Assembly: GCA_017506865.1 (NCBI GenBank)
Contig: JAFCMP010000555.1
Location: 124,001 to 188,000 of the forward strand
DNA length: 64,000 bases
From: Tribonema minus
Lineage: Eukaryota; Sar; Xanthophyceae; Tribonematales; Tribonemataceae
Direction: 5' to 3'
Positions 425-63,881 of this stretch are shown piece by piece. The stretch's first letter is position 1. Each line of letters begins with the position of its first letter. Position numbers and translations under genes: made by a program. The notes beneath the pieces are model-generated. The model saw only the letters and a program-made list of their open reading frames with translations, was not told the origin of the DNA and searched no databases.

Positions 425-640
425 TTCCTCCGTGGAGCTAACAAATGCGGGCAGCAGCAGGCACCTGCTAGTACAGGCAACAAACATCTCTGCGGTTTTG
501 GGTCTGTCCGCTATTGTGACTGCAGCTACGCCGCACCTGGCAACCTAGTGATGCCGCGCCCTGCCGCGGCGGCGATCACCTCCGCGCGCGCCTCAGTGGA
601 GCTGACGAAGTGCGCGCCAGCGGCACGCGCCATCTAGCAC
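425..640 (-). repeat. Echoes of the aldolase exon 3' edge and donor
   Basis: The sequence at 541-640 repeats the last part of the aldolase exon and the first part of its intron (compare 702-790 and 640-715) with scattered changes, including the shared line ctccgtggagctgacgaag. A third, more decayed copy lies at about 425-500, where cctccgtggagctaacaaa and ctctgcggttttgggt recur. The copies lie downstream of the real exon in gene direction and have stops or indels, so they are not read as coding. Confidence 0.75.
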
Positions 641-701
641 AGGTACTAAGCAACTCTACGGTTTTGGGTTTGCTGTATTTGTAACCGCACCCGCAACGCA
701 C

Positions 702-972: not shown

Positions 973-1216
973 AGGAGCGCGTAGATGCGTGTGTGGGTGG
1001 GGTGATGTGGAGCGCATGTAAGGGTCGAGCGCTGGTGCCTGGCGCGGGGTGCTGTGCCAGTCCGCACGGTGTGTGATGATGAGGCGCGGCGCGCTGCGCA
1101 TGATAGAGGGGTGTGCATGCAGTCGACGAGAGGCTATGCCATGCATGTACACGGAGCGGTATAGTTTAGAGGAGCGTTTAGCGGCACCGCCTGCGGACAT
1201 TGAGGCCCGCAGCCAA

Positions 1217-1384
1217 CAGTGAGTCTACCATGGCCGTTGCCTGTTGAGTTGTAAGGTATGAGCGTCGTACATCAGACAACGCCAGGTTGGGTGTGATATA
1301 CAGTGAGTCTACCATGGCCGTTGCCTGTTGAGTTGTAAGGTATGAGTGTCGTACATCAGACAACGCCAGGTGGGGTGTGATATA
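1217..1384. repeat. 84-bp tandem duplication
   Basis: Two adjacent copies, 1217-1300 and 1301-1384, both start cagtgagtctaccatggcc and end gtgtgatata. I see two mismatches in 84 positions, so the duplication is recent or kept similar. It sits in the putative shared 5' region of the aldolase and gluconolactonase genes. The minus strand stays open through both copies, giving a repeated YLTTQQATAMVDSL peptide, which may be chance. Confidence 0.9.
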
Positions 1385-4900: not shown

Positions 4901-7900
4901 CAAGTTCATCGGCGCTCACGCCTGCGCGCAAGCGCTGTACTTCAAAGTATAAGTTCCACCTTTCTGCGTATAACTTCCACCTCTCTGCATTTTGTCGCAC
5001 GTGTGAAAGACGCTGAGCATTGTCTCACGCCTAATGACCATACATCGGCAGCCTGTTTACACCAGGTTTCTGGGTTCCATGAGAGTTTAGAGTGTGTGCT
5101 GGGTTTGTTCCACGACGTGGCGCTGGCAGCTGCATCCGCAGCGTCCTCCATACACTCCTTTGCAGTGCCAGGCATCTGGCAGCCTCTGGCACTCAACTTT
5201 CAAAAGCCAGTTGCGAGTGCTGCTCGATGTCACTGGCGCGGCCACTTGCAATGGCTGTGCTACAGCAACAGGAAGAACATTCCCCTGCATCAACTACACA
5301 TGGTGACGTGCCACTCTGCATCGACCCGCCCCCTCGATGTCACTGCCGCGGCCACTCGTAATGTCTGTGCCGCAGCAACAGGAGTCACACTCTTTTCCCT
5401 GCTTCAACTTCACATGGTGACGTGCCGCTCTCCATACGACCACCGCGGGGGGTGCCTCCTCCAGGCAACCTGTACTTCACGGACTCGTCGTACTGGCTAC
5501 ACTACACCCCCTTTATTCAAGCACACATGGTGACGTGCCAGCCTATGTATCCCCCCCCCGGTGCCCCCAGGCGACCTGTACTTCACGGACCCGTCCTACG
5601 GCCTGAACGAGCTGGAGGCGTCGCCGGAGCGCGAACTCGACGTCAACGGCGTGTACAGGATCCGCGCCGCGCACGTCAAGAAGACGCTGCTCCTGCGGCA
5701 CGACGGGCCGGCGCTGGCGACGGACGGCCTTAAGAAGCAGCAGCAGCAGCAGCAGCGGGACCTGCAGCAGGGTGATGCTCAGCAGCAGCAGGGGGCGGTG
5801 GAGCTGCTGGAGGGGGACATGTCTCGCCCGAACGGCATCGCGTTCTCGCCGGATTTTGACGGGTATGTAGGCTGCGACGCGTACGCCTGTAGCGACGGCG
5901 GCGCATTGCCGCATGCATCTGTGAGACAGCGGCTGCGGGCTGCGACCGCAGTGTGTGCATCTCTTGCTGAGCGTATCGCCGCGTGGTCAGCAGCATGCCG
6001 CAGTGTTCCTCGCTCGAGGGAGACTGGGACGCGACCATTGTGTGGGTTCTGCAGCCTCCACCCTTGCAGCAGTGCCGCTGAACCACGGCACGCGCTTCAT
6101 CGGCTTTGTGCACTAAAGATCACACTATGCTCATCCAATTGGCCGGTGTTTTGCTGTGTCTGATGCCGGTACGTGTCCCTTTTTTTGGCACTCAGGACGC
6201 AGGCCACCCCTGCACTACTGCCATGCTCTGTACATTCGGTGGTGGCCGTGTGTCGCGGCTGCGCGCTCTCGCGGCGCCGGCCGCTTCATGTTCAGCTTTG
6301 AAGTACGCCGCTAACCGGCCCCTGGAGAGTCACTCCCTCGCTGTCTGCGCTCAACGCATTGCGTACTGGCAATGAGCGCAGTGAACTTCTGTAAAAGTCA
6401 CCGAGGCTTGGCATCTTCAACTAGAGATGACTCATAGCTATTGAGATGGCTAAGACTATGAAAACAAATCAAAACATCGTAGAGCTCCCAGTGACAAGGT
6501 GCGGTTGGCCGTCATATTGATTGCCTTCCACCAAGAACCGTGGTCGCCGCTGCTGCGGCAATTGGCCACCACGAGTCAAACAGCATTGTACGCGTCCCCG
6601 GCTCGCTCGCCGCAGGCTGTACGTCGCCAACTCGGACAGGGCGCGGCCGCACGTGCGCGCGTACAAGGTCTCTAAGAGCGGGCGCCTGAGCGAGGGGCGC
6701 GTGTTCTTCGACGCGACCCCCCTCGCCGCCGGCCGCGTCGGCAACCCCGACGGCCTCAAGGTGGACGCCAAGGTACCTACTCCCGCTGCAGAAGTACGTG
6801 ATTCGCCCTTGTTGTGTGTGCAAGGTTTGGTGGCCGAGCCATGGCACCGCATGCGGCGCGACTGATTTTGCTTCAGTGATGAGTTTGACACGTGGTATTT
6901 GATGCGGCCCCCCTAGCCGCCCGCGGCATCGGCAGCCCCGACGGCCTCAAAGTGGACGCCAAGGTACGTGACGCAGCAACGCGCATGAGCGCTCCTTTTG
7001 CGTTTGGGGCTCGATGATCGAGCCATGACGCCGCATGCGGCGCGACTGATTTGCTTCAGTGATGAGTTTGACATGTGATATTTGATGCGACCCCGCTCGC
7101 CGCCGGCTGCGTCGGCAACCCCAACGGCCTCAAAGCGGATGCCAAGGTACATCGCGCAGCAGCAGTGCGCAACGTGCAATGTGCTTGCTTTGGAGCACGC
7201 AGACTTCCTGGTGTACAGATGATGCTCGCAAACGACGGCGGCACCATGCTAGTAACGCTCACCCTAACCCTAACCTGGCACTTTCAACAGGTGGCCTGAA
7301 GGTAAGACTCAAACTTAAACCCTCACACCAAACTCGCACTTCACATGATGCAGTGCTATGTAGAAGTTGCGCTGCGTCGGTGCCACGGCTTCAAGGCATG
7401 CATGCGCGCTCTTCGCAGCGCTGCTTGTGTCTCCAGAACGCAGCACACCTGATGGTACAATGGCGGGGTACGGACGCGTGTTTGTCAAGCCTTGAAGTGC
7501 TGACTTGGTGGCATTGCGTGCCCCTTGTACTTTTTATTGATTCTGGCTCAGGGCGCGAAAAAGCCCAGATGAACGGCATCTAAACTTGCTGCACGGAATC
7601 TACACGTCATGTGACAGTCTGAAAGTGTCTCAATGATAGCCACTCAAACGACGCCCCTTGTACTTTTTATGCCCCTTGTACTTCTATCGAGTGCCCTTGC
7701 AGCTGAAACCAGGTGTTTGTTGGCTTTGCTGTTTGTTGCACAGCGCACTGTGGCCTGCGAGGTGGCCTGTATCACTTGCCGTGGTCCACGGCGCGCTGGC
7801 AATACGACGCAACCTGGTAGAGCGTGCATAATTGCCGGGGCCGGGGTGGTTGAGCCACAACACCCCATGGCCCAGTGCGAACTTGTTTACCAAGGTACTG

Positions 7901-8920: not shown

Positions 8921-11900
8921 ATGCTTTCCGCCATGAAACCAGCGCTGAGGGTGGCCTCCCCCCTCGCCACCAGGGCTCTGGGCCTGGAGGCTGCACGATC
9001 TTTCTCCAGCTCCAGATCTGCCCAGGCGAAGGTGCGTATTTGCTGCACTTGCTGATGAGATAGCATTAATGTATTGCTTTTGCATGTAACCACCTGATGC
9101 ATAGCTAAGAGATGAGTATGCTGGTGCCATGTGGGCTCTCTTGGCCGGCTGCGGGAGTCAGGCGCGAACTTCTTCGCTTTTTCCGTGCCGCTGCGAGCCC
9201 GACGAGATCCACTCATGTTGCCCTGTCCTCTGCCCTTGTGCCTTCCAAAATAAAAGTCGAAGGCTTTCGTTGGCACTCCTACACGCTTGCATTGAGCTTC
9301 AGACCCATGGACTAGCAAATGTGTAGTGTTCTGTTCAAGTGGGTTTGCTGAAGCTCCGCCACCACAACTGTCGGCCGCTCTTTGGTACGCCTCAGCCTGG
9401 GGCTGCCTAGCTCAAACTCTCAAAGGAAGCTGGACACACTTCAAATGCAAGAGGTTGCTTCTGCTGACATCACATTACGATTCTCTGACGTTTGTTGCAA
9501 CTTACACCAAGCATGGACAACATCAACTGCGTTGCCTCCGTGCGTGCTGTGAATGTCTGCACAGGTGACCGTGGTGGGAGCTGCTGGCGGCATTGGACAG
9601 CCCTTGTCTCTGCTGCTGAAGCTCAGTGGCAAGGTGCGCACTCGAAGTCTTGCTTCTTCTCAGCTCCTCGGTTCTGTAAAGCAAATGAATTTATGTAGTG
9701 AGCTGATGTACACAGCCCCGCAATGGAGAACATAAACTTGACAGGATACTCATGAAATTCAACAGCAGGGCATACAAATTCATCAAGATGGTAAGCTGCT
9801 GAGCATTACGTTCCCTGAGTGGGCCAAGCAGCTTTGCTGACTATATTGCCCAGCAGCTTGTGATATAGTTCAAGTGCCGCATTTCGACGGAGCTGGTCCA
9901 ATGCCTGTAGTGCAAGCACAGAACTCAACTACTACCTGTCGTCAGGACAAGATCCACAGATCTCACTGGCATATGATGGTCAGGGTGTGCGCTTGTATTG
10001 ACAGTTGAGTGCAGCATTATTGTTGACTGCATCGCACTTGATTTCTGCACGCAACAGCCAAACAACACAGGTGCTGCTGCAGCATTGGTGTTGCGGCATG
10101 TAGGCTGGGATGTTACTGTTCAAGGTTGCTGGTCGATCAATGTCACGCTGCTCTTCACATACGAGTTGAAGTTGCCAGTCACGACAGTGGCGCAGTGCTA
10201 CTCCGATTAATTATGCTTACACCAGTGCGCAAAGCATGACATCGTAGTCGTAGTTGAAGTGAGAGGGCGTTTGAGAGGCCACTTGCACCTCACAGTCAGC
10301 AAATATAATAATGGTGGCACTCTTCGACTCGTAGCCAATTGCTGCAGCTGCGGAGACCACGGTTATTTGTGGAAGGCACTCGTGGCTAGCCACACCTTGT
10401 CACCTGGAGGTATGAACTTGAATTTCTTTCCGTAATTGCTGCAGAACACTGAACCAGAAAACAGCACATGCGGGTTCTGGTCCCTGCCACACTCGCCGTC
10501 TCGTCCAATGCGGAAATCTCATCGTCACCAGTGCTACGACACATTGACCAGCATGCTGATGGGGATGCCCGCATTGCAACAAGCATGCTGAAAGTTACCA
10601 ATGTAGCAACAACTTTTTTTTGCCCCAACTAAAGATGGAGGGCATCACTGGCAATGCGCTGGAGGGTCATTCTGATTCTGGAAGACACCTACGGATGTAT
10701 GTGTTGCCAGGATCAAGCCACCCTTGTTTGGCTTCCAACAGCACGAGAGAACTGTTTAAGGCCTCATCAACCGCGGCACGCATCCCACTCGCATGACTCC
10801 CTTCACAGGTGGACCACCTCTCTCTATATGACCTGGTGGGAACGCCCGGTGTGGCAGCGGACCTGAGCCACTGCAACACCAACGGGAAGGTGACGGGGCA
10901 CAAGGGGGCCAGCGAACTCAAGGCGGCGCTGCAGGTAAGCGCTGTACTTCAAGTGTGAAGTTTGTGACCACGCTATCATGATGTGATGCTGGCAGCGGAT
11001 TTGAGCCACTGCAACATTAGCGGGCAGGTGACTGGGCAAAGGATCCCAACTGGAGGCAGCGCGCAGGTCTGTATGTACTTCAAGAGTGAAGTATGTGTAT
11101 GTAGGCAGTGAATCATGACGCGATGTCGTCGTTGATCTGTTTGAGATGGCGTCGCATCATGTGCGTGTTGTGGTACCTGAGCCACTGCAACACCAGCGGG
11201 AAGGTGACAGGGCATGAGCGGCCCCAGCGATAAGAAGACGCTGCAGCTATGCATATGTGATGAGTCGCAACGGTATTGTACCGTTGGGTTGGGTGACATG
11301 CGCGTCAGCTCATGTATGCGCCATACTAACAGACCGGCGGTGCTTCAGTCTGGATGTGAACGACCTGGGCGCGAGGAGCTTGCATAGTGAGGCGAACGCG
11401 GTGCTGTAGGTGCAGTGCGCAGTGCGGTCACATTGCGTACGAGAGACCGACTTAGCAGCCTCAGGTCATGCAGAGACTATACCAGTGAGTACCAGCGATC
11501 ACAGTACCCCGACGCCAGATGCGCTTTCATTGGCCTGCGGACGCAGGAGCAGGTGCTTGTGGTACGTCTGCTGATACTTGCTGTAGAGCCTGCTGTAGCA
11601 GCCGCTTACACAATTTGGTGGACACAGAGCGCACCGGGCGCGCTGACACTGTCAAGGTGACCTCAGGCATACGGCAGTAGTATATGTGGGACGCCCGTTA
11701 AAGCTGATGTGACTGATGTGACTGATGTCGATCACGTACTACGAGTATCGTTTTGCACTCGTCTGTTCACTGTACATGGTTTCTCTATGTGCATGTGCAT
11801 CACATGTATACCTTGGATGTGTATGATGTTGATCTGTGCTGTTCAAGTCTGGCGATTAAAGTCTGGCTCCAAGTCAGCGCTCACCCATATCGCGCTCGCG

Positions 11901-14900
11901 CCGTTAGTGCTGCTAGATGCGCATATACGCATCATACGCACTCTGAAGCATGATGTTGAAGTCTGGCTGTTAAAGTCTGGCTCCGAGTCAGTGCTCACCC
12001 ATATCGCCCTCGCGCCATTGCTGCTGCTTGATGCACATATGTCATATCTGCATCATATGTACTTGCGGTATGATATTGATATCTGCTGTTGATGTCTGGC
12101 TCCAAGTCAGTGCTCTCCCATATCGCCCTCGCGCCGTTGCTGCTACAGGGCGCAGGACGCCGATGTGGTGGTCATACCCATCACATACTTCAAGTATCAT
12201 ATTTGCACTGCTTGTCTACTGTCCATCGTTACTCAATGTGCATATGCATCACGTGTATACCTCGGATGATGTACTTAAAGTATGATGTTGATCTGTGCTG
12301 TTGAGGTTTGGCGTCGAGTCAGTGCTCACCCACATTCCCCCGCGCTGTTGCTGCTGCGGGGCGCAGGACGCGGACGTGGTGGTGATACCAGCGGGAGTGC
12401 CGCGCAAACCGGTGAGCGATGATGCTCAGCTGATGCTGCTGCTGCTGCTGCTGCTGCGTTTCTTTCTCATGGACTCCGGTTCGCGCTGGGGCTGCACGAT
12501 CATTTTTAGCCGCTGGTCAAAGATTGTTTTGAAGTACACTTTGCCATGTGTTTCACATGGGAACTGGTGTGCACTGCGTTCGCACGGTCGCCGCTGGTCT
12601 AAGGTATACTTCTTGAGGAATGTGCGCTCCCATCGTACGGCATACGCGATTGGCACCGATGACTGTACATTGTGTCGTCATTGCTCGCGCTGTCTCGCCT
12701 TAGCTGCTGCGTGTACACACGAGAAGTCTCCGCACTGTAGCGAGCGAGAGATTATTCTTTATTCTTTTAAGTCCAGTATTTACATGTTTTGTGTCTCAAC
12801 AAATTCCTCTGCCCCCCCCCCCCCCCCTCTTGCTAATGCCAAGGCATCAGTATCTACATGCTCTTGTGTTTCAACAAAGCCCTCTACCCCCCCCCCTCTT
12901 AAAATGCGGTTTGACCAAGTACATGCGTGTGCCACAGCATTGACATGTTTGTGTCCCAACAAACCCCTCTGCCCCCCCCCCCCCCCCCCTCTTGCTGACG
13001 GTATTTTGACTGAGTGTATATACCGTCCACATGCTTCATGTCTCAACAATACACCCCCCCCCCCTCTCGCTGACGCCAGGGCATGCCAATCTCTTCAACA
13101 CCAACGCAGCGTTTGCTGCCCGACTAAATGAGCATGCTGCTGCATCTGTAGACATGCTGTGTGTCACCACCCCCCACCCCACCCCCCCTCGTGCTGACGC
13201 ACATGCTTTGTGTCTCAACAACCCCCCCCCCCCCCCCCCTTCCCCCTTTCTTGCTTATGCCAGGGCATGACCCGCGACGACCTCTTCAACACCAACGCGG
13301 GCATCGTCAAGGGCATTGCGGAGGCGTGCGCGGAGGCGTGCCCCAAGGCGCGCTTCCTCATCATCTCCAACCCCGTAAACAGCACCGTGCCCATCTTCGC
13401 AGAAGTGAGTCGCCTGTGGCAGCCTGAAGGTCGATATTTAGTGGCAGCATGCTAAGCCGTGTGGGTGGCAATTAGGGTCAGGGTGCCCATCTTTGTAGAG
13501 GTGAGTCAGTGTGGCAGCCTGAACGCGCATATTAGTGGCAGCGTGCTGTTCGATGTGGGCGGTATTTAGGGTTAGGGTTAGATTGGGTGTGCCCCAGAGC
13601 GCGCTTCCTCATCATCTCCAATCCCGTCAACAGCACTGTGCCCATCTTCGCGGAGGTGAGCCGCTGCTCGTATGCGCAGGTGGTGTCGATGCAACGTATC
13701 TTGGCACTCGATACACTGCAGCTCGGTGCCCGCACGCGCGTCGTCGTCACAACGCATCTCGGTACCTGTACGAGTGTCAACCCATCCCGGTACCGAGATG
13801 CGTGACCGAGATGCGTTGTTTGTTTGGACACCACCTGGTCGCACGCTGTGGCAGCCTAATGGCACATATTAGTTGCAGCGTGCTGAGCGATGTTGGCGGT
13901 GTTTAGGGTTGAAGTTAGGTGAGGCGTGCCCCAAGACGCGCTTCCTCATCATCTCCAACCCCGTCAACAGCACGGTGCCCATCTTTGCAGAGGTGAGTCC
14001 TTCTGGCAACCTAAAGGTCAATATTAGTGGCAAGGTGCCAAGCGGCGTGGGTGGCAATTTGGGTTAGGGTGCCCATCTGTGTGGGGGCGAGTCACTGTGG
14101 CAGCCTAAAAGCGCATGTTAGTAGCACCCCCTCTCCGCCGCCCGCGGTCCCTTCGCATCGTTGCCCCTGACCTTTCCAAACGCTCGTCAAGGCTGCCCCC
14201 ACAGCCCCCTTTCGAAGCCTCTGCCGTCAGTAACTGCCGTGCTGACCCTCCACCTCCCCCCCTCTCCCGCTCTCCTCTCATCGTCGCCGCTGACCCTCCA
14301 AACTCCCTTCAAGCGCACCCCCCCTCAGCCCCCTTCTTTAAAGCCACCAAGTCATGCTGCCCCCCCCCCCCCCCCCCCCCTGCCGCCCCCCTCCCCTCCT
14401 CTCGCCGTTGCCACGGACCCTCTACGCTCCCTTCGAGCACGCCCCCTCAGCCGAGCCACTAAGTCGTGCTGACCCCCCCTCCGCCCCGCCTCGGCCCCTC
14501 TTCTCGTTGCCTCCGCAGGTTCTCAAGGGCAGGGGCGTGTACGACAAGAAGAAGCTGATGGGCGTGACGACGCTGGACGTGTGCCGCGCGCAGACGTTCG
14601 TCGCCGAGAACCTCGGCCAGAGCGTCAACGACACGGCCGTCGACGTCATCGGCGGCCACGCCGGCACGACCATCCTGCCGCTGCTGTCGCAGGTGCGCAC
14701 CATTTCTGAGTTTACGAAGGATTTAACGCGGCGTACTCATTGATGTGTATGCGCGTGTTGTTGGCTATTGTTGAACGCTGCCATGTTCAACGACACGGCC
14801 ATCGACGTCATCAGTGGCCACAGCGAGGATGAGCCACATGTGGGCATGATCATCGTGCTGTTGCTCTCCCAGCTGCGCGCCGTCACCATCGCTGCTCAGC

Positions 14901-17900
14901 AAAGCAACACTTCCTTTACCCCCAACACTCCTTTCACCCCCCAGCGCACTTCGGTGCACGCATGTGCTGCATGTGCTGCACCACCTCTTACCCCCCAGCG
15001 CGCTGCTACAGAGAACGCATGTGCCGGGTGCGCCGCGCCAGTCGTGAGCTGAGACACCTACCCTACCCCCTTGTCTCACTGTGCATTGCGGTTGGCATTC
15101 CGCAGGTTGAGGGCGCCAAGTTCTCCGACAAGGACCTGGAGGCGCTCACCCACAGGTGCGTACGTGTGCGCATACCTACGGCATGTAGCAAGGCGACAGC
15201 GCGCAGGCTGCTTGTGGCAGCGCTCAGGTTCGCCGGGTTGATGTCATCCCCATGCGTAGCAACAGCGGGCGCCGCGAGGCCCCAAAATGGGGGTTTTGAG
15301 GAAAAAGGGGGGGGGGGGAGGGGGCTGGGCAATCGTGCCGCAAAGTCAGCACACACGCAACCCCCTCCACCCCCCCCCCCACACATACACGCACAAACAC
15401 ACATGTTCGCAGACCGGGTTGTGTGCACCCAAATCTGTGCTCTTTTTCATGCGCGCGTGTTGTTGGCACAGCGTATGCAGGGCAGCCTGTGTTGTGGTTT
15501 GCATTTGCAGTTCAGCTGCGTGACCGCAGATGCTGCAAGGCCTGCCATGTGGAGACCCAAATACCCAAACCTGCATCCGAGGGTATGCGTCTAGGTCATC
15601 GTGAGTGGGTAGGTTTGGGTATCCCGCTCATACACTAGAAGACCTCACCTGCGGTGATGGGCTGAGGTGGAATGTGCAGGATTTTGCTCGGACAACAGTT
15701 ATGTACAGGTATCAGTAAGGGATCCGAGCATTGAATCTGCAACCAATCAACACACCTTCCATGCGCCGTGTCCTGATCGCTCCTACCACACCGTATGTAC
15801 ATGAATCAACAAGGGACCTAAGCATTTGAATTTGCAATCAGTTTTTAAGCCACATCTCTTGTGCGCTTCGTACCGTATGTATCACGCCACGCGCGCAGGA
15901 TCCAGTTTGGCGGCGACGAGGTGGTCAAGGCCAAGGACGGCGCGGGGTCTGCCACCCTGTCCATGGTGAGCATCCATGACAGTTACGAGCGATGTAACTG
16001 CCGTTGCCGCTGCCGGCTCTTATCATGTGTGCCCGGCTGTGCGCGCATCTGCAGCGGCGCTCAGGCGCCAAAGATGAAGCGGCGTTGCCAACTGCAGTGG
16101 TTTGATTACACTACTAGCTTGGCACGTTCAGGCCCCCTAAACATCAGTGATCCTTTGCACACGTCAAGAACGCAGTGGCTCATAGCAGCGCTTCACTCTC
16201 AGGGACGCACACTTCATCAGGCATTGGGGAGATCCGTCCGGTCTCGTAGCAAGCACACGGTGCCTGTGCGGCTTGCGCATTCTGGAATCATGCAGTGACG
16301 AAAGTCAACCGATCACCCCCCGCGGCTGTGCGCACGTGGCACCTGTGCCGCATACGTGTATGGTGTGCCGGCGTGCTCAAGTGCAGCAACACCACGAGCA
16401 CCTTGGCACACACGGCCCCTCTTGACTCATTTACTCGACTCAGTCACTTGAATCACCCACTCGACTCGTCCCTCGGAAGCCGCAACACAGCACGCGGCCT
16501 TGATTTGTCGTCGGCTGACGGTTGCACACTTGCACAGGCTGCGCACGGCACCTTCAGGACCTGCTTGACTGACCATCGTTGTCATTATGCCCCCCCCCCC
16601 CCCCTTTCTGGCCACAGGCACACGCTGGCGCGTACTTTGCTATCCGCGTGCTGGCAGCGATGGAGGGCGAGGCCGACATTCGCGAGTGCACATTCGTCGA
16701 GAACGACCTCACCGCCGCGCCGTACTTTGCGACGCCCGTCATCCTCGGCAAGGACGGCGTTGAGAAGGTGCGTTGCGCACACATACTTGAAGTATTCCAC
16801 TAGTCGCGGAATTGTCGGTCGGTCTAGTTGCGTCTTGATTGCATGCGGCAGGTGACGCATTGCGACACAGACATCACCACCGCGCCGAACTTTGCCACTC
16901 CCGTCATCATCGGCAAGGACGGCGTTGAGAAGGTACGTTGCGCGCACATTATGTGCGCTTTGAGGTCTTTGAAACTTTCCACGTGTAGCACAATCTGCTG
17001 GTTGGTTCAGCGGCTTGTCGATTGCCTAAAGCGGGTGATGTGTTGCGAGAACGATATCACCGCCGCGACGCGCCTTGCGGCGCCCGTCATTCTCGGCAAG
17101 GACGGCGTCGAGAAGGTGCGTTGCGCGCATATGCTGTGTACTTTGAGGTGTTTCAAAGTTTTCACTTGTGGTGCAGTTGCTCGTTGGTCCAGTCGCGTCC
17201 CGATTGCATGCGGCAGGTGATGCGTTGTGCGAACGACCTCACCGCACGCGCCGTACTTTGCCACTCCTGTCATCCTTGGCAAGGACGGCATGGAGAAGGC
17301 GCGCTGTGTGGCGCTAAGATCTTTTGATTCGTCCCCATGAAAGTGTGTAGAATGTTGTTTTGTGCATTGGCCCCTGTTGGCGCACGGGCACGCGCGTCGC
17401 GTCTGCAGGCTGCCTGTACAGACACAAGTGTTGTCAGGCACGCTCTGGGCAGTCACCCAAACGTTGGCGTGGCTTGCCACTCGCGGAGCTGGTTCAAGCG
17501 CCGCGTGTAGTACGGGTTAAGGTGAGGTTCTTGTTGCATGTGGCATCGATGTCGAGCAGGCGTGCTAGACACACGCAGACTGCGCGGGGGATGAACGCGG
17601 AGGTGAAGTCAGTGAAAGACATGTGCGCTGATTGCTGACAGTAAGGCACCCATACTAGCGCCCGGCGTGCCACTGCTTTGTGTGCGCTGGCGCTCTGCGC
17701 ACCCCGGGGCGTGGCGACTCGCGCACGCACACGCACAGCAGATGCTGCAGGCCCGAAATGTCTTCTTGAATTTCTCATTTTTTTGCGGTCGTTCGTTGCT
17801 GTGCAAGCGTCATCGCTGACAGCGCGCCTGCGCGACAACAATGCCTCCGCTGCCGTTTTGCGCAGGTCCTGGGCTTCGGCAAGCTGAGCGCATTTGAGCA

Positions 17901-17976
17901 GAAGATTCTCGACGAGAACGTTCCCGCGCTCCAGGCGCAGGCCAAGAAGGGCGTCGACTTTGTTCACAAGGCATAG
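8921..17976 (+). CDS. Malate dehydrogenase, NAD-dependent, mitochondrial type
   Basis: Ten exons join in phase: 8921-9031, 9565-9633, 10809-10934, 12367-12411, 13264-13404, 14519-14692, 15106-15155, 15899-15965, 16618-16767 and 17866-17976, giving 347 residues plus TAG. Malate dehydrogenase interconverts malate and oxaloacetate with NAD. Seen motifs: GAAGGIGQP (nucleotide-binding loop, about 42-50), [11 protein letters not shown] variant, [19 protein letters not shown] with substrate Arg near 115 and 121, NPVNST near 154, LDVCRAQTF with Asp 184 and Arg 187, and IGGHAGTT with the catalytic His near 211. Residues 1-37, beginning [14 protein letters not shown] and ending [11 protein letters not shown], look like a mitochondrial presequence rich in Arg and Ser with no acids before residue 23. 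Length and motif order are normal for the mitochondrial/bacterial clade. Exons 3, 4, 5, 6 and 9 have echoes in the adjoining introns. Confidence 0.95.
10985..11240 (+). repeat. Two downstream echoes of MDH exon 3
   Basis: Copies at about 10988-11070 and 11170-11235 repeat the exon segment coding [14 protein letters not shown] (gagccactgcaacaccarcggg and kgtgacrgggca) and continue to gcgctgcag-like ends. Both contain stops or indels in the original frame. Confidence 0.8.
11835..12185 (+). repeat. Three upstream echoes of MDH exon 4 acceptor edge
   Basis: Units at about 11845-11930, 11960-12045 and 12090-12175 share gtctggctccaagtcagtgctcacccatatcgcc with the sequence just before real exon 4 (12305-12366). 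The nearest copy also carries the acceptor and exon start (gcaggacgccgatgtggtggtcatacc), mirroring the real gcgcag/GACGCGGACGTGGTGGTG. Confidence 0.85.
12780..13260 (+). repeat. C-rich intron 4 of MDH with repeated polyC units
   Basis: Five or more units combine a phrase like catgctttgtgtctcaacaa with a run of 9-18 C bases and cttgctgaygcca. The unit at 13070-13110 carries an echo of the exon 5 edge (cagggcatgcc, then ctcttcaacaccaacgcagc). The real exon 5 follows a C run ending cttgcttatgccag/GGCATGACC. The open frame across this stretch on the plus strand is a low-complexity artefact. Confidence 0.75.
13470..14110 (+). repeat. Downstream echoes of MDH exon 5 donor edge
   Basis: Two good copies, about 13588-13656 and 13921-13993, encode [22 protein letters not shown] and [22 protein letters not shown] and end at intact donors (gaggtgag). 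Shorter scraps at 13480-13505 and 14068-14095 keep only gtgcccatct and gaggtgagtca or gggcgagtcac. The intron phrase tggcagcctgaa/gcgcatattagtggca recurs after each copy. TTAGGG-like hexamers sit between units. Confidence 0.88.
14770..14885 (+). repeat. Downstream echo of MDH exon 6 donor edge
   Basis: One copy of the exon stretch coding [13 protein letters not shown] to LLSQ recurs as aacgacacggccatcgacgtcatcagtggccacagc and then tgctgttgctctcccagctgcgc. It has an insertion, and the donor GT has become ct. Confidence 0.8.
16830..17300 (+). repeat. Three downstream echoes of MDH exon 9, the first an intact in-frame cassette
   Basis: Units of about 165-183 bp repeat the last third of exon 9. 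Copy 1 has an acceptor-like gcatgcggcag ending at 16851, 27 open codons in the exon's own phase ending GKDGVEK, and donor gtacgt at 16933. Copy 2 ends GKDGVEK with donor gtgcgt at 17116 but its acceptor-like site is spoiled. Copy 3 has a frameshift and the donor has changed to gcgcgc near 17299. The copies could be silent, or copy 1 could serve as an alternative exon. Confidence 0.88.
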
Positions 17977-22500: not shown

Positions 22501-24684
22501 ACTGCGAGCTGCTGGGCCCTGTGCGCTTCGTGTCCATGAACGACGGCGCCATTTTGGAGGCGGTGGGCAGTTTTGGTGAGTCGAGTCGTTGAACACGTGA
22601 GTCGAGTCGTTGAACACGCGCTATGGACCGCGGTTATTGGTGGAAGGCACTTGCGGCTAACCACTCCTTGTCACCTACATAGAGCTCCACGACATTTTGA
22701 TTCGCTTTGATGACTTGGCATGGTGTGCCTAAAGTCTGACGTGGAGCGTCTCTCGTGGAAGTGCACGTTGAAGAAGAGTGCCGACAGTAAGCAGCTTTGG
22801 TGAGTCCGCTGGACACGCATCACCTGGCATGGTGTGTCTGAGGCCTGACGTGGAGCGTCTCTTGTGGAAGTGCATGTTGAAGAAGAGCGCCGACTGTTTT
22901 GAGGTCCCAGTCGCTGAGCGCGCCCCTCATGCCGGCCTTGCGTGTCTCAAGGTGATTCAACAACCTGGAGAAGGGCACATGCTCAAATGATGTTCAGCGC
23001 AACTGAGACCTGTGCATCACGTCATTTGCGTGACAAACTATCGATCCCTCCAGAACTGGTTTGGTCATCAAGGCCACTGAACACCGCATGCAAAAACGAG
23101 CGTTTCAACGTTCATCATCGCCCTTCATGTGAGAACTCAATGTTTCGACGTTCATCATCGCGGTTCATGTGAGAGCTCGTTGCCTTTTGCGCGAGGACTA
23201 ACAGAATGTGCACTCGCGCCCCCGCGCGCCGCCAGAGAACCTGCGCTTCAACGACCTCGAATAGGGCACGAACGAGAACGACGTGTAGCGTGGTTGAGCA
23301 CTGTGCATCACGTCAGCACACGACAAGACATCATTCCCTTCAGAACTATTTCAGTCATCTAGGCTGCTCAACACCTCATGTAAGGGCTCACCACACAACA
23401 CATTGTTGCCACCTGTGCGAGAACTAATGTATGCTCGCCGTGCGTGCGTTGCCAGAGAACCTGCGCTTCAACGACCTGGAGAAGGGCACATACGCGACGC
23501 TGTCGGGCGACGACGAGGGCTTTGAGTGCCACCTCAACATCGACCGCGTCAACGGCATCACCATGCTCACCAAGCCCGCCAAGGACGCCTCGCACGACCT
23601 GTACATCACGCGCTTCGTTGACGCCGAGGTGAGCGGCGGCGGCAGGCAGCGCTCTGTTGCTTTGGATGCCTAACCTCAACATTAACCCTAAACCCTATCC
23701 CTGATCCTAAGCCCGCCAAGGACGCCTCGCACGAGCTGTACATCACGCGGTTCGTCGACGCTGAGTCGAGCGGTGGTGGCAGCGCACTGTGGCAGTGCTC
23801 CGTTGCTTTTGGATGCATAATTCCAACTCTGATCCTAACTTTACAACGTAACCCCAGTTCGCCAAGGACGCCTAGCACGACCTGTACATCACGCGGTTCA
23901 TGGATGCCGAGGTCAGCTGCGGTGACAGCGCTCAGTTGCTCTTGGGCCTAACTTCAAACCGTGACCCTGATCCTAACCCTACACTATGCTCACCAAGCCT
24001 GCCAAGGACGCCTCGCACAAGCTGTACATCATGCAGGTCGTTTACGTCGAGGTGAGTGATGGCAGTGCTATGGTGCTTTTGAATGACGTATGCAGAAAGA
24101 ACCAGTGCTGATGGGCCGCCTGTAAGCTGCACTAGCGGCGTGTCACCCTTTCGTGCTGAGCGCTGCTGATGCTGCGGCGTGGCACGGCACGCGTCAGTCG
24201 GCGACGTCCGCCGTCGTCAGTAAACTTCAGCATGCTGTACGATTATGAGATGGTGGTCATCCTCGCTGCAAGCAGTGCTCTCGGCGTGATGCAAGAGCGC
24301 ATGGGCAACGCTTCGCTGTCGCGGTGTACTTTTGTCAGCGCTCTCTGCATCACACATGCCAGCAGGACGTTTCGTGCCTCGTTCTTATGATTCGCTTTAT
24401 TCCATTGGAGTTTCACAAGCGCATGATTACACGCCGGTCTGAGGCGGCAACAGGTGGCAGCAGCCCTTGCGGATTCTGTGCAAAGCGCACAAGATGATTG
24501 CACTCGTCCTAGCGCCAACGCTCCCATGGGTGTGCTCAATTCGTTGCCGCCGCCGCCGCATGCGCAGGGCAAGACCGTGCTGTCAGCGATGCTGCAGGCG
24601 GAGGGCGGGCAGTACGAGGAGGGCGCCGTGGCGTACTGGACCAAGCTGCGCGAAGCGTTCGGCGCAGAGCAGAAGCTGCAATGA
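19521..24684 (+). CDS. Plastid-targeted ChuX/HutX-like heme-utilisation-domain protein
   Basis: Four exons join in phase: 19521-19599, 22405-22575, 23456-23628 and 24568-24684, giving 179 residues plus TGA. Residues 1-22 form a signal peptide (MRAGIIIAALLAQALGVAA), followed by FFGAALTAPSRHLRAASALR, a transit-like stretch with Phe next to the expected cut and no acids. This is the two-part presequence of secondary red plastids. The mature part has LGPVRFVSMNDGAILEAVG, ECHLNIDRVNGITMLTKP, LYITRFVDAEGKTVL and WTKLREAFG. These match, in order, the VRFIxPSPGAVLEAxG, GHLxxDRCxxIxFVExP and FFNxDG blocks of the bacterial HutX/ChuX heme-trafficking family. The similarity is by eye and moderate, so heme binding is inferred. 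Exons 2 and 3 have echoes in the adjoining introns. Confidence 0.72.
21735..22300 (+). repeat. Upstream echoes of HutX-like exon 2 acceptor edge
   Basis: Three or four units before the real edge (22360-22450) share cgcacgtaacgctcaagctgcc, gcgcctcgccccccaccgcagccccc and cgctgcgc-tgaccgtc. The copies at about 21745-21845, 21905-22015 and 22135-22295 carry acceptor-like ccgcagcccc plus degraded exon starts. Each begins with a phrase like acttcaactacttcaagtactac. Confidence 0.85.
22626..22720. repeat. Dispersed repeat shared with 10355-10405 and 57160-57250
   Basis: The line ggttattggtggaaggcacttgcggctaaccactccttgtcaccta recurs with changes at 10362-10405 and 57171-57215. Here and at 57215 it is followed by a similar gctcyacgaywttttgattcg. 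No coding function is seen. It is followed by a local tandem duplication (about 22715-22780 and 22825-22890, tggcatggtgtgcctaaag and gacgtggagcgtctct). Confidence 0.65.
23195..24070 (+). repeat. Echoes on both sides of HutX-like exon 3
   Basis: An upstream echo at 23215-23275 repeats the acceptor edge (gccagagaacctgcgcttcaacgacctcga, then a stop). Three downstream echoes at about 23708-23775, 23860-23920 and 23988-24055 repeat the exon end GCCAAGGACGCCTCGCACGACCTGTACATCACGCG with one to several changes. The last two end at GAG/gtcagc and GAG/gtgagt. CCCTAA-like words lie between them. Confidence 0.88.
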
Positions 24685-46300: not shown

Positions 46301-49300
46301 TGCATTGCACTTGTTTCATGGCGCAGGTCTAAGTGTGCTTCTACTTTTATTGAACTTTCATCATGCGTTGATACATAACTAGCAGTGCTTTAGAAATAAA
46401 AAAGACTCGGCTGCGTCAATCGAGCCCTGGCATAGGATGCTTCACCGCTCAGAACCCTGCATACAGTTGTGAACCAACTTCAACTCTGCTCAGCTAGAGT
46501 CACCTGTAGTGCCATGACAACACCAGCTGCAAGCCCTTGTTGCCATAGAGCGGTCATTTCCTGCCAGCTTGACATACTTCTGCAGGTGACTCTCATTTTC
46601 TGCACAAGCTCGTCCAAGCGCCAAACATGCCAAAATGGCGCAGCCGCCACTGTCGTCCGTGCTTAGTACAAGGCCAGGGCGCAACAAGGACCATCGTGCA
46701 GACTGCTGCTGTTGAAGTTGAAGCTGTGCTCCAGCGCAACGGTGCGAGTAGTGCGCATCATGGCTACATCTCAAAGCAGGCGAGCGCAGGCATGATAGAA
46801 TTGAAGTTGTGTCAGGTGCCTGCACGCACCGCTTTTTCGAATGTGAGCTTCACGTGCTCGCCCGGCATGCCCTTGCCCTCCAGCAGGCTCCTTCGCATTG
46901 CACTTGTTTCATGACGTAGGTGCAAGTGTGCTTCTACTTCTATTGAGCTTTCATGCACTGCAGGCATGTCCATGTTAAAGTTAAAGTTCACGGATCATGC
47001 CCACCCGCGCACCTTGACTTCAAACGTGAGATTCACGTTTTCGCCCGGCATGCCCTTGCCCTCGAGCAGGATGTGCTTGCCGTCGGGCAGTTCCTTCAGC
47101 TCAAAGCCCCTCTCGCGCAGGCGCGTCAGGGGGACCTTCGTGTCTGCAAGTGGGGGCGCCGTAAATGCCGGCCCAGCCGCACAAGACAAGGTAAATCAAG
47201 CAAGCGTGTTAGCAGCCCTCGGCGCGGAGGCACACACGCCGAGGGGGGAGGGGCACAACTATTGCAATGCATGACGTGAAGTCAAGTGTGTCAGCTACGT
47301 TGTTGGACGCTTCTGTCGCGTACCGCGGTACTTTTAATTGATTCTCGCATCAGGGGGACCTTGGTGTTGCGAGCAGGCACCGTAAACGCCGGCCCATTCG
47401 CACACAAAAGGTTAGCAGGCATGAGTTTTAGCAGCCCTTGGAGCCGAGGCACGCGCTGTGGGGTGAGGGGTAGGATCATCACACTGCACGATTTGAAAAA
47501 GTCAAGTCAAGTACCACCTTTGCTGTCGGACATATCTGTTATGTATCATGGGTGGGTATGATTGCCATCATTGTGTGACGCCCTTGCATGCCATAGGGAG
47601 GCCAACATCAGACCGCATTCCTTGGACTTCAGCAGTGAGAAGCTAGCTGCGTGTGAATGTAGCCACTTCCCGTCTGCCAGCGGGCGAGTCACAACTTCAG
47701 CATTATGTATTTTCAACGGAAGTCTGCAACGGCATCTGCGTGAGATGATATTTGAAGTACACTGGACGGGGGTTTTATCTGGTAGCAAGCTTGACATTCA
47801 TCGTATGGGCTTCTCCGCGCCCTAAGCAAGAGTTACTTTGCTAACATACGGGGTTCGTAATGTGACACGTGCAATGGTCCTGCCGATGGTGTACTCATGA
47901 TGTACTCATGATGTGCACATGATGTACTTGCAATGTACTCATGGACTTGTTTTCATACATGTAGGCCTCAGAGGGTGCTGGATGTCCAGACGTGCTCCGA
48001 ATCGGACGGTTCACATCTTGCAACAGCCTAGTCAGCGATAAAGTGTGCGCTTCGTCAACAAAAACGCCAGTTGCTGAGCACTGCACCAGTGGCCTCAGGG
48101 CGCACAGCTGTTACTGCAGAGCTGCGCAGCTCTTCCTGCAGCACACTGTTGCAGTCACAACCTGGTGCAACGCGGACGTACTACTGCCAGAGTCGCTGAT
48201 CATGACTTGCTAGCTGACAACAAGAAACGGCGCATTACTTGACGTTCATGCCATCTCGAACTTCAAGCGATCCACTGACGTGACTTTGAACGGTGCCCCT
48301 GTGGCGCCTGACGCTAACCTAACCCTACCTTTAACCCTAGCCCTGACCCTCAGCACAACGCCGCACCGGTCACTGCAGTAACGAAAGGCATCACTGGTAC
48401 TTCTCTACATGCGCATGAACACGCGCTTTCAAGGTATATTCATTACACACAATAAAGTGTACATGTGACACCCTTTTCTCTGCATGTGCATGCACACGCG
48501 CTTTCGAAGTAAATTCATTACATAGAAGTACAAACAACGAAGTGTACATGTTGGCGGCGGCAGCTTTTGAGTGGTCGTCATCAAGACACCTTCAGACCGT
48601 CACACGCCATGTACAGTGGATTCCGTACGGCAAGCTCAGATACCATTCATCTGCGCTTTTAAAAGCGCCCTGAGCAAGATTTATAAAAATGAAAAGTACG
48701 TGTAGACACTGACCTGCGCGACTCTGGCGCACCATGATCTGTGCGGCCATGTCTACATGGAGGGCGCCTGTGACACGTTCTGCAATTTATATTGCGCGGA
48801 CGCCATGACGCTGCTCGTGCATTCCACCACCGCTGATGCACTACTCCTTGTAGTGACCATGCTCTCTGAACAAACAATGAAGTGTAGGCATCATAAATAC
48901 AAGTCCATACGTACGTGTAGGCACTGACCTACGCGGCTCTGGCGCACCATGATCTGCGCGGCCAGCGCCTTGGGGAGCGAAGCGTTCCAGGATCTCACGC
49001 GCCGAAAGACGGTCGTCATACGCCCCGAAAAGTACGTCGTCAACATGCCGTACACGACCAGACCTGCGAAAAGGGACGAGGGAAAGTCACCGCACGCACA
49101 GGCGTAGTAGTGAAAAAAGTCAATGCGCGATGCAAGAAAGAGCGGATGAGCTTTGATACGCCTGCTTGGGTGCCAGGCATACCTCTGCATGCACATCAAC
49201 CCGCGCCTTTGAACAGGGAGGAAAGAGCAAAGAGGGAGAATCTCGGATCCCTGGAATCACTTGTGTCCTTGGAGGGCGAAACCATGCTGATGCATCAATT

Positions 49301-59444: not shown

Positions 59445-62400
59445 CTAGTAGGTGTCCGGGGACGGCAGGTTGGCGAGCGTTGCTACAACAGCCGCGGCGG
59501 CGACCGCCAGGATGATGGCGCCGGTGGCGAGCGACGCTCCCTTGTTCTCGCCCTCCTCCACCTTCATCTTGGGCTCGATCGCCCACACGTTGGACTTGCC
59601 TGCCGGGTTCAGAAATAATCGCAGGGTAGACTGAGCGTCAGGGGTCATGCGAAGATGGGTTGTGATGCCGCGGGCGCTACAGAACGTATCCCTATGCAGT
59701 CAGGATTAGTGCCGGTGGCGAGCGACGCTCCCTTGTTCTCGCCCTCGATCGCCCGCACGTTGGACTTGCCTGCCGAGTGCAAAAGCAAGTGAGCACAGTG
59801 ACGACCGGGCGTCAGCATTCATGCGACGACGGAAACGCGATGTACCGCGCACCACACAAAACTTCGCTTCTGGCGTGGATGCATCGGCGCTCAACTGCAG
59901 ATGCAGCAGTGCTCGGCAGGTCGGCAGCGCTCACCATCTCGGGTCCCGCCACGCGCCGTACCGCATGTAGAAACGCAACACTTCACTACCGCATACGGGA
60001 CGCGCCGTGCCGCAGCCTAACAGACCTCACTTGAAGTTTGGATGCTCAACCACTATGCAGCATTGCTCAGCAGGTCTGCGGCAGCGCTCACCGTCCTGGT
60101 CCCGCGACGCCCCGTACCGCGTGTAGAACGACACTTCACTACGGCTTACGAGACGCGCCGTACCGCATGTAACACAAACTTCACCTCAAGTCTGGATGCG
60201 CCAGATGCAACAGCGCTCAACAGGTATGCGGCAGCGCTCACCGTCCCTGAACTCCAACACTCGCCGCACCGCACATAACGTACGAAACGTGCCATACCGC
60301 ATGTAACATATTTCACGGCGGCGCACATGCGCCAGCGCTCAATATAATACTGTATGCAGCAGTGCTCAACAGGTGTGCGGCAGCGCTCACCATCCTGGTC
60401 CCGCGATGCGCCGTACCGCATGTTGGCGTTGGGCTGGAAGAAGCCGCTCTGTCCGAACTGCGGCGCCTCCGCCTCGTCCTCCACAACCTCCTCCTGTCAG
60501 AAGAGTACCCAGAATGGAGGCACTTGTAAGTGAGAAATGGACGATTTACTGCTTTTGAAAGTGTTAATGCGTCACATTTTCTTTGGTGCAGTTAGCACTG
60601 CGGCGTCTCCGCCTCATCCTCCACGACCTCCTCCTGCAACAAGCACAACATGATGCATTTGTGATTGAGCGAGGGACGATTTAGTGCCGAATGTTTCATT
60701 CGTCACGCTTCCTTTTGTTGAACTTGAGCTGCCCTCTTTTCAACTTCATACTGCGGCGTCTCCACCTCTTCCTGCACGCCCTCCTTCTGTCAGGATAGTA
60801 ACCAGAATGGAGGCACTTAAGGTTGAGAAGAGACGGTTGACTGCCCAATGCTTTATGCGTCACGCTTCTTTTTTTGAAGTTAACACTGGAGCGTCTCTGT
60901 GGTCGAAGTTAACACTGCGTCTCCGCGCCTCATCCTCCACAGCCTCCTCTTGTTGCAACACCAACCACAACGTGGAGGCACTTTGTGGTTGAAGTGCATG
61001 CGAACGGACTACTGCCAATTTCTCTGCGTCACATCTCCTTGTTTTGAAGTTACGCTGCATTGTGTTGAAGTTGACGCTGCAGCGTCCTTCCGTCTTATCC
61101 GCCGCTGGCCTCCTGCTGCTGGAGTGGTGACATCGTGGAGGCGCTTCGACACGTTGACAGCGCGCACAGAAAATGGTATTGGCTGATTCACAATTTCGTA
61201 AATTGCGGCTGCAGTTGAGGTTGTGGCTGCTCCGCGGCGGTGTCCCCTGCTGCCTTCTTAGAATAGCACATCATGCAGGTGCTTTTTGTTGAAAGGCGCC
61301 GATGACTGTTGCCTTCTGTCATGACACGTGCACCACACAAAATGACTGCCCTTCGTATACAAGCTGAGGGAGACCCTATCTCTAACCCCACAAATGACGA
61401 GTGTCACAACGCAATATCGCCGCTTGCCGCAAACCCCGTTGACCGCTTCTTGAAAATTAAACGGAACATGAACTTGCACTGGGTTCACCCAACGTAACGA
61501 AGGACACTGGTGAAGTTTTCAAAAACAGTGCTAACGAACAGAAAAAAATAACTTGCTTGTGTTATAACTATCCTTGGTGAATGGCCAGCTGCCCTGCAAA
61601 CTCTGGACGTACCAGCTACAGCCAAGACAGCACCATTCAAGCATGATCACAGAGTATCAATAGCGTAGAATGTTTTCGCTTCCTCCCAGCACGTGTGATG
61701 CATGATATGATCATAACAAACAACCAGTTCATGAAAGGACTACTGCTGCAACAGCTGTGATAGGTGACTGCACGCCGCGGAAGTGAGATGGAACGCACCA
61801 CACAAAAAGAGGCAGCGCTACCGCGCTTGCATGTCGACGCTATTATGCCTATATCCTGCTTCACCGCGTGACACTCATCCATCTCGCGTTGCACAGCCTC
61901 AAAAAGCCGCCTTGACATCCGCGATCAGGAATACAAACACAAACACCACACGTCAATGTGTCATCGCTCTGGATGATGAAACGGTCATCAGCGGCTGTGC
62001 TTCAAGTACTATGGGACACACCTCCTCCACAAAACACAAACCCCAGTTTCTACCCCCCCCCCCTCCCTCTCTCTCTCTGATGTACCCAAGCTTCTGTACT
62101 CTTAAGAACTGCAGGTGACGCGCCGCCTCCAAACACCCCAGTTTATATCCCCCTGTCTCTCTCTGACGTACTCAGACTTATCTACTTTAAGTACCACAGG
62201 TGACGCACCTCCTCCACGATGGCCGCTGCCTGCTCCTCCTCCGTCTCGCTCTCGCTCATGCGCAGCTGCCGCACGGCCCGCCGCGTCGCCACAGCGCTGT
62301 TTGAGCCGCGCCACGAGTACAGCGCGACGGGTCACGGGTGAGTCGAGTCGAGTTGCGAGCTGAATGTTGAACTGGGAAAAGGCGTAATCAATGCGACACA

Positions 62401-63881
62401 TTACCCCGAGTGCAGTGCGACGAGTCACGGGTGAGTGGAGTCGAGTCCAGTCGCGAGCTCAATGTGAGAACTAGAAAAAAGCGATACATCGTCCCGTCTT
62501 TGCGTCGCCACAGCGCTGTCGAGCCGTGCCACGAGTACAGCGCTAGCATCAGCAGCGAAATGATGAAGCAGAATTAGAGCTTCCTGGCGCAATACATGAG
62601 CCCCCCTCTGCAAATCAAATGAGAGAACTGGCCCCCGCACTCCATCGCCAAAAGCGTCCAGACCCTTGCGGAATGACTCATTTGTGAACAGTCAGCACCT
62701 ACGTGCGATGCAGCTAAGCCAAGAGCTGCAACCAGAAGGACTGGTGAGGGTTAGGGTTAGAAATAAGTTCTGTGGCACGTCTGTCCTTCCTAGTCTCGGG
62801 CCGGCGCAGCTACGCACTGGCAAATGCACAATGCAGCGCTCTCCTGCCATGAATCAAGTACAACACTGCACGCATGCCAGTGATGTACGTGTACGCGGTG
62901 TGCTGTGGTCATGTTGCGTTTTGAATGGGCACACCTAGCATTGTGTCCAAGAACACTGTGCTATGCCATGTCAGCAACGCACACTCGGTTCAAATGTCGC
63001 TCTAGCGCAGTTGCCGTTGCGGTGTGGTTACTTCAAGCCTGGCGACTAGGGCCAGCGCTAGTAAGGACGCACTACACAGACTACTGTAGAACTTGTCGAG
63101 CGCAGGCACAATCGTTGTGAAACGTCATTGTTACAGTGACTCCATCGCACTTTGAGAAACTTCATGTAATGGCGGTGTGAACCACACGATTGCCATATGC
63201 GTCTGCTTCTCTGTGTGCACGACCTGTGCAGTGTTGTTGCTGCACAATGGCGGGTTCATGGAATGAATGTTATGGATTTTGTGTGCAGACGCCGATAATG
63301 ATTGCAGCTAGGTGACTGCAGCTGACGATACTGGACAACTTGACTAGGTGTGCTGCAAGATACGCGTATCACCAGTAGCTGGCTAATTCCATCACTTCAA
63401 AGCTGCTAATACTGTTCGCTAACAGCTTTCGAAGGGCCGACGCTGAAACTGCGCCGGCAAAGAGGCGTACATATGTGAATGGGCACCGCGCAACGCATGG
63501 TGATGCACGTCCAGCGAGACAGGGTATGGCAAACTTCACGGTCACATTCTACAGCTGCGCTGACCACTCGATCGCTGACGGCAGATACCCACACCTACTG
63601 GAACGGCTCTGCTGTGGTCACTGTGTTCCACATCAAGCGGTGAGCCGATGTGGCATCGGGTCTAGCAGGTACTTCAGCGCTATGCACTGCTAGCAAAGTT
63701 GCACACAGCAGATGAGCGCTAAACTATGGATGCTTTGCGCGCAGCGCCACAAAAGCCAACAGCAATCGTTTACATGGGCAATTTACCTTCTTGCCAGAGA
63801 GCGGCCCGAGCCAACAGGTGCGAATGCGGACACGCACGCCAGGAGGGCCAGCAGAACCACGCACAGCTTCATGGACATCAT
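59445..63881 (-). CDS. Plastid-targeted single-span membrane protein of unknown function
   Basis: Four exons join in phase on the minus strand: 63787-63881, 62209-62296, 60391-60493 and 59445-59599, giving 146 residues plus TAG. The start MMSMKLCVVLLALLACVSA is a signal peptide, and the next residues FAPVGSGRSLARS form the ASAFAP-like motif (Phe at +1) of secondary red plastids, followed by an Arg-rich transit stretch (ATRRAVRQLRM). The mature part is acidic (SESETEEEQ, EEVVEDEAEAP), then QFGQSGFFQPNANMRYG and SNVWAIEPKMKVEE. One transmembrane helix (ASLATGAIILAVAAAAVVAT) precedes a short tail (LANLPSPDTY). Size and layout suggest a small thylakoid or envelope subunit; I do not recognise the family. 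Exons 2, 3 and 4 have echoes. Confidence 0.82.
59700..60275 (-). repeat. Echoes between plastid protein exons 3 and 4
   Basis: At 59708-59772 an upstream echo of the exon 4 acceptor edge repeats ggtggcgagcgacgctcccttgttctcgccctc and acgttggacttgcctgcc, with an internal deletion. At about 59905-59970, 60055-60130 and 60200-60275 are downstream echoes of the exon 3 donor edge (gcggcagcgctcaccgtcctggtcccgcgacg with changes). The real edge is at 60375-60425. Confidence 0.88.
60590..61150 (-). repeat. Upstream echoes of plastid protein exon 3 acceptor edge
   Basis: Four units at about 60592-60650, 60748-60815, 60905-60970 and 61065-61130 repeat the real edge (ggcgcctccgcctcgtcctccacaacctcctcctgtcag, 60460-60500). 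Each unit is separated by a phrase like ttttgaagttaacactg. Confidence 0.85.
62010..62550 (-). repeat. Echoes around plastid protein exon 2
   Basis: Two donor-edge scraps, about 62005-62030 and 62105-62130 (ggtgacgcgccgcctcc), follow the exon in gene direction. An acceptor-edge echo at about 62490-62550 (cgtcgccacagcgctgtcgagccgtgccacgagtacagcgc) precedes it. The phrase gggtgagtsgagtcgagt recurs at 62335 and 62429. Confidence 0.78.

What the first reader, a model, noticed from the sequence alone, without database searches (positions are those of the whole stretch)
425..62550. Exon-edge echoes: introns built from tandem copies of neighbouring exon-intron junctions
Seen directly in every host gene of the window. 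A stretch of 30-100 bp of exon edge, with its splice site and some intron, is repeated one to four times in the adjoining intron. Donor-edge copies lie downstream and acceptor-edge copies upstream. Copies range from near identical with working-looking GT or AG sites (16930, 13990, 23920, 7150) to barely recognisable. This suggests that introns grow by repeated tandem duplication across splice junctions, leaving decoy sites. I know of proposals of intron gain by tandem duplication, but not of a genome where nearly every junction is echoed this way. The transposase gene of the MULE does not show it.
Basis: seen in the sequence. Interest (0 to 1): 0.88.

Follow-up and report, generated by a model that had tools for sequence, protein, structure and literature searches.

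The report
Introns swollen by copied exon edges
In the yellow-green alga Tribonema minus many introns have grown by short head-to-tail duplications that often copy an exon edge together with its splice site, leaving working-looking decoy splice sites beside the real ones.

Summary
The echoes are real and occur far outside this window, which lies in the Tribonema minus assembly. In 13 modelled genes (55 introns), 37 of 110 exon-intron junctions have a direct copy of the exon edge inside the adjoining intron, and 29 introns carry at least one. In these loci plus L017 there are 199 direct and 0 inverted local pairs. Repeats cover 33% of intron bases. "Nearly every junction" is too strong: about one in three, ranging from 9 of 12 to 0 of 10 by gene.

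Best explanation: untargeted short tandem duplication, units mostly 60-220 bp. Introns are short, so many units span a junction, and copies anchored on a slowly changing exon stay visible longer. Edge excess beyond this is confined to multi-copy arrays. Echoes keep GT/AG at about the neutral rate (26 of 31). Their nonsynonymous count fits the intron rate, but synonymous changes are in excess, so neutrality is not fully proven.

Growth is seen in a paralogue pair: five shared introns total 2,434 bp in one gene and 6,098 bp in the other, 2,715 bp of it recognisable extra copy. The signature of intron birth by tandem duplication is absent (0 of 55).

The parts
8921..17976 (+). Mitochondrial-type malate dehydrogenase gene, 10 exons (8921-9031, 9565-9633, 10809-10934, 12367-12411, 13264-13404, 14519-14692, 15106-15155, 15899-15965, 16618-16767, 17866-17973, then a stop codon)
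   Evidence: Spliced alignment, all introns GT-AG. Transcript-derived protein P0013 listed at 100% identity (rounded) over 68% of the query; read against the model it differs at two residues, both I/V
10990..11252 (+). Two echoes of the exon 3 donor edge (donor after 10934)
   Evidence: Pairs 10852-10966/10990-11097 and 10861-10940/11175-11252
11731..12357 (+). Array of repeats upstream of exon 4 (12367); 12057-12178 is a copy of 12269-12389, which spans the acceptor
   Evidence: cluster A; 11700-12420 matches only itself in the genome
13483..14126 (+). Echoes of the exon 5 donor edge (donor after 13404): 13483-13578, 13586-13664 and 13921-14126, all with GT kept
16852..17306 (+). Three echoes of the exon 9 donor edge (donor after 16767); the last has GT changed to GC
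   Evidence: 16698-17306 matches only itself in the genome
14787..14821 (+). 35-bp copy of an internal part of exon 6 (14625-14659), not reaching the junction
6891..7169 (+). Two echoes of the donor edge of a predicted exon ending at 6772 (SMP-30/gluconolactonase-like gene; name recalled, no family search was run on it)
23519..24068 (+). Donor-edge array at a predicted exon 23456-23628 of an unnamed gene
29195..29296 (+). Echo of the donor edge of predicted exon 28910-29125 (93% over 102 bp, offset 164)
48696..48749 (-). 54-bp echo (92.6%) of 48911-48964, the donor edge of a predicted minus-strand exon 48929-49063
1216..1384 (.). Exact tandem duplication, 84 bp twice, 97.6% identical: the highest identity in the window's self-BLAST list of nearby pairs

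Best explanation
Short head-to-tail duplications (units mostly 60-220 bp) arise repeatedly along genes of Tribonema minus and are tolerated whenever the coding sequence still splices correctly. A unit lying in an intron, or crossing one junction, leaves the exon intact, because splicing uses the site still joined to the exon body. Units inside exons or containing whole exons are removed by selection. Introns therefore ratchet upward in length. The echo drifts while the exon template stays constrained, so exon-anchored copies remain recognisable up to about twice as long as intron-intron copies. Shown here: direct repeats, unit lengths, local uniqueness of four arrays, near-neutral change, absence of whole-exon and exon-exon copies in the sample, and a paralogue pair with grown and ungrown introns. 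Inferred: the mutational step (replication slippage or repair copying), selection as the filter, and exon-based splice-site recognition as the reason decoys are harmless.
For: 199 direct and 0 inverted local pairs in the gene loci. Adjacent-copy offsets mostly 60-220 bp, median 157 over 224 pairs, not independent. Four arrays match only their own locus, or also one paralogous exon. Repeats cover 33% of 42,993 intron bp and 25% is extra copy; covered fraction rises with intron length (rho 0.53, P=3e-5), and 32 introns over 10% covered have median 846 bp against 515 bp for 23 others. Paralogues L018 and L023: five shared introns, 2,434 bp with 63 bp extra copy against 6,098 bp with 2,715 bp. Whole-exon repeats in 0 of 61 exons, 0 exon-exon pairs. 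Nonsynonymous differences exon-echo 106, against about 113 at the intron rate, interpolated by me from simulated 92 and 125. GT/AG kept in 26 of 31 aligned echoes, about 86% expected at 7.3% change per lineage. P0013 and annotated P0121 fit models using the exon-proximal sites.
Against: With a minimum-unit null the excess is larger (20 of 28 against 7.2 or 9.3). The nonsynonymous share of exon-echo differences is 0.47 (bootstrap 0.38-0.55) against 0.58 simulated for a neutral echo; dN/dS is 0.29-0.30 (bootstrap 0.20-0.41), and indels are 0.7-0.9 per 100 bp in exon parts against 4.7-4.9 in intron parts, more than the expected twofold. One echo (L017) has 17 synonymous and 3 nonsynonymous differences. 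At 11 junctions tested, the rest of the expected unit shows little similarity (2 of 11 above z 2.5). Rates are very uneven: L015 and L016 have no echo.
Confidence: 0.66

Rival explanations
1. Duplication is targeted to exon edges: a process tied to transcription, splicing or nucleosome-bound exons makes breaks or pauses there and copies the junction repeatedly.
For: Donor-side coverage peaks at the junction (12 of 37, against 6-8 of 37 at 25-75 bp into the intron). Window repeat coverage falls from 34% in predicted exons to 3% beyond 2 kb. Unit sizes include the nucleosome scale.
Against: Single-pair clusters show no clear excess (8 of 15 against 5.1 to 7.3, P 0.09 to 0.46; 7 of 22 against 7.7). 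The rotation test is not significant. Acceptor-side coverage has no peak at the junction. Random locus L009 is rich in repeats more than 2 kb from predicted exons. Echoes can be called as exons, which inflates exon proximity.
Confidence: 0.2
2. Echoes are functional alternative exon edges kept by selection.
For: dN/dS 0.29-0.30 and few indels in exon parts; nonsynonymous share below the neutral simulation; one echo with 17 synonymous to 3 nonsynonymous changes; 10 of 16 donor echoes with GT score as high as the real site or higher.
Against: The nonsynonymous count is close to the intron rate. GT/AG is lost at about the neutral rate, and 9 of 10 acceptor echoes with AG score lower than the real site. 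Using an echo would add intron sequence to the message. P0013 and P0121 fit models using the exon-proximal sites.
Confidence: 0.07
3. New introns are born by tandem duplication of an AGGT-containing exon segment.
For: L023 has one intron (7602-8247) that its predicted paralogue L018 lacks, and it carries echoes of both flanking exons.
Against: The diagnostic register (repeat offset equal to intron length at both junctions) was found in 0 of 55 introns. The fused flanking exons find in that intron only the separate edge echoes.
Confidence: 0.04
4. Assembly artefact or dispersed transposable element fragments.
For: None found in these calls.
Against: Most copies differ by 5-30% and lie on many contigs. 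Proteins in public databases are 100% identical to the gamma and theta models. Arrays match only their own locus or also one paralogous exon.
Confidence: 0.03

Closest known systems
Intron gain by tandem genomic duplication (potato RdRp case PMC4974935 and Drosophila cases PMC2891723; search listing and start of abstract only)
   Same: A direct tandem duplication involving exon sequence and splice sites.
   Different: There the duplication creates an intron whose length equals the unit (recalled). Here existing introns grow; the birth signature was found in 0 of 55 introns.
Intronic tandem repeats or minisatellites (recalled)
   Same: Head-to-tail local copies that change intron length.
   Different: Units are mostly 60-220 bp with few copies, and often contain coding sequence and a splice site from the adjoining exon.
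Introner elements (recalled)
   Same: Sequence-driven intron change in algae.
   Different: Introners are dispersed near-identical families; the four arrays searched match only their own locus or a paralogous exon.
Long introns of brown algae (Ectocarpus median 524 bp; PMC12477816, passages read)
   Same: Related ochrophyte with long introns in a compact genome.
   Different: That paper describes intronic TEs and reports tandem repeats as relatively even across site classes; junction echoes are not mentioned in the passages read.

Membership tests
Intron gain by tandem genomic duplication | Repeat offset equals intron length and the copies lie at both junctions | tested here: not met
   0 of 55 introns; 0 of 37 in the first set
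Local tandem duplication in introns | Direct, not inverted, local copies | tested here: met
   199 direct, 0 inverted pairs in the gene loci including L017; in 12 random loci 186 direct and 3 inverted, summed
Local tandem duplication in introns | Copies confined to the locus | tested here: met
   4 arrays searched in the whole genome: 3 match only themselves, 1 also a paralogous exon
Introner elements | Many similar copies in unrelated genes | tested here: not met
   the tool skips very common words, so this is a limited test
Duplicated or mutually exclusive exons | A whole exon repeated with both splice sites | tested here: not met
   0 of 61 exons lie wholly in a repeat copy
Alternative splice-site use | Echo sites used in mature RNA | not testable with these tools
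   Only protein-level evidence: P0013 and P0121 fit models using the exon-proximal sites

The most novel reading that the evidence does not exclude
Exon edges are duplication hotspots in this alga: a process tied to transcription or exon-positioned nucleosomes repeatedly copies about one nucleosome length across the splice junction. Introns thus grow by a ratchet that seeds strong competing splice sites, which exon-defined splicing ignores.
Probability: 0.2. Interest if true: 0.75.

Novelty: new variant of a known kind. Interest (0 to 1): 0.55.

Why it matters
It shows a concrete route by which introns lengthen without transposons, readable copy by copy. It also sets up natural tests of splice-site choice: genes in which the true donor is followed by near-identical donors, some scoring higher. 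A paralogue pair with the same introns grown and ungrown gives a direct comparison. Gene annotation in this genome is at risk, since echo edges look like exons: my own predictor called several.

Tried and rejected
Pfam scans of six-frame translations of five 5-kb window stretches gave no family, probably because exons are short. Rfam and tRNA searches of the window were empty. The rotation test showed no enrichment. An echo-echo comparison printed 6.3% change in exon-derived parts against 17.4% in intron-derived parts, but two of its eight rows are self-overlap alignments; without them 34 of 274 exon-derived sites differ (12%), with codon positions 11, 5 and 18. It is too small to use. Coding constraint on echoes looked strong in single examples; pooled, the nonsynonymous count fits the intron rate but its share of differences stays below the neutral simulation. 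Listed rows of literature searches show no report of junction echoes; lists are capped and only the open library was searched.

Dropped before counts: four echo hits not taken as exons (one in L014, two in L017, one in L020); four poorly scored intron links (L016, L019, L020, L022; the L020 one was replaced); locus L017 (no linked intron) from junction counts; L002 and L004 (GC 0.71 and 0.66, possibly bacterial). L001 repeats window sequence.
Full report
What and where. The window is G000:C552:124001-188000 of a 158.2 Mb, 554-contig assembly. My TCP-1 gamma model from contig C5 is 100% identical over its whole length to a protein named Tribonema minus, on a contig of 559,003 bp, the length of C5. 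The theta model from C135 matches in the same way (1,271,169 bp). The organism is therefore Tribonema minus, a xanthophyte.

Gene models. MDH has 10 exons. A transcript-derived EukProt protein, P0013, is listed at 100% identity over 68% of the query; read against the model it differs at two residues. Its N-terminus reads into sequence like the end of intron 3, so that transcript probably starts in an unspliced intron. All ten Cpn60/TCP-1 gene regions hit by a family search, and three proteasome loci out of eleven first asked for, were fetched and modelled from family anchors and splice scores. TCP-1 gamma equals the annotated protein residue for residue. For theta the spliced alignment covered residues 38-556 and was not letter-identical over that span, although the typed 501-residue model is 100% identical. 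L018 and L023 were completed with my codon-based predictor, so their extra exons rest on that and on their mutual similarity (exons 1-5, 69-81% nucleotide identity).

The observation. In 55 introns of 13 loci, 37 of 110 junctions are echoed and 29 introns carry at least one echo. Direct pairs number 199 and inverted pairs 0, L017 included; in 12 random loci there are 186 direct and 3 inverted pairs (summed). On the first 37 introns a sensitive test gives 25 of 74 junctions at p<=0.01, against 2 of 74 for reverse complements. Genes differ greatly: L023 has 9 of 12 junctions echoed, L015 has 0 of 10.

Is it anchored on edges? In the first 37 introns there are 28 repeat clusters, 20 of them touching a junction. 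With clusters placed at random as blocks, 10.6 are expected (P=0.0002); allowing exon-anchored copies twice the visibility, 14.6 (P=0.02). A minimum-unit null gives larger excesses. A rotation test was not significant. Donor-side coverage does peak at the junction, acceptor-side coverage does not. So much of the apparent anchoring is geometry plus slower decay; the rest lies in multi-copy arrays.

How the echoes change. Exon parts are 90% and intron parts 84% identical, about what one constrained and one free lineage would give. Nonsynonymous differences number 106, against about 113 expected at the intron rate; synonymous ones number 119, against about 83 (both interpolated by me from the simulations). 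Against pure neutrality stand a nonsynonymous share of 0.47 (bootstrap 0.38-0.55) where 0.58 is simulated, a dN/dS of 0.29-0.30 and a shortage of indels in exon parts, and one strongly synonymous echo in L017. Alignment ends and the nature of intron sequence may explain the indel difference, but I did not prove that. GT/AG is kept in 26 of 31 aligned echoes, as expected for neutral drift.

Growth. Repeats cover 33% of intron bases and 25% are extra copies; longer introns are more covered. Paralogues L018 and L023 share five introns: 2,434 bp with 63 bp of extra copy, and 6,098 bp with 2,715 bp. About 72% of the difference is therefore recognisable duplication (my arithmetic). No repeat holds a whole exon (0 of 61) and no pair is exon-exon, as expected if selection removes those. 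The signature of intron birth by tandem duplication is absent (0 of 55).

Unit size and origin. Adjacent-copy offsets are mostly 60-220 bp, median 157, with the fullest 20-bp bin at 160-179. The nucleosome scale is a suggestion only. Four arrays searched in the whole genome match only themselves or also one paralogous exon, so these are local duplications, not dispersed elements.

Literature. Ectocarpus, a relative, has long introns (median 524 bp), and its tandem repeats are described as relatively even over site classes (PMC12477816, passages read). Intron gain by tandem duplication is known, but I saw those papers only as listings. No listed row or 73 describes junction echoes.

Limits. The gene sample is small and weighted to chaperonins. 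There is no RNA, no relative's DNA and no full annotation here. 

Noticed in passing
L018 (G000:C511:164800-169300) and L023 (G000:C516:687600-696400): Paralogous Cpn60 genes with the same five intron positions; L023 has a further intron absent from the predicted L018 gene, so one intron gain or loss.
   Followed up: partly
L002 (G000:C1:1-10000): Contig C1 is 2.45 Mb with 71% GC in the stretch read; it may be a bacterial contaminant of the assembly.
   Followed up: no
L017:0-854: Acceptor-edge echoes of a TCP-1 exon, one with 17 synonymous and only 3 nonsynonymous differences; not explained by neutral drift.
   Followed up: partly
window 12040-12370: P0013, a transcript-derived MDH protein, starts with residues resembling the intron 3 tail and its echoes, suggesting intron retention or a different start in that strain.
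   Followed up: partly
   Followed up: no
L009 (G000:C210:50001-60000): Repeat-rich stretch with few predicted exons, including a 166-bp unit at 97.8% identity: tandem duplication also occurs away from recognisable exons.
   Followed up: no
G000:C434:44617-47137: Proteasome-family matches with several stop codons, probably a pseudogene.
   Followed up: no
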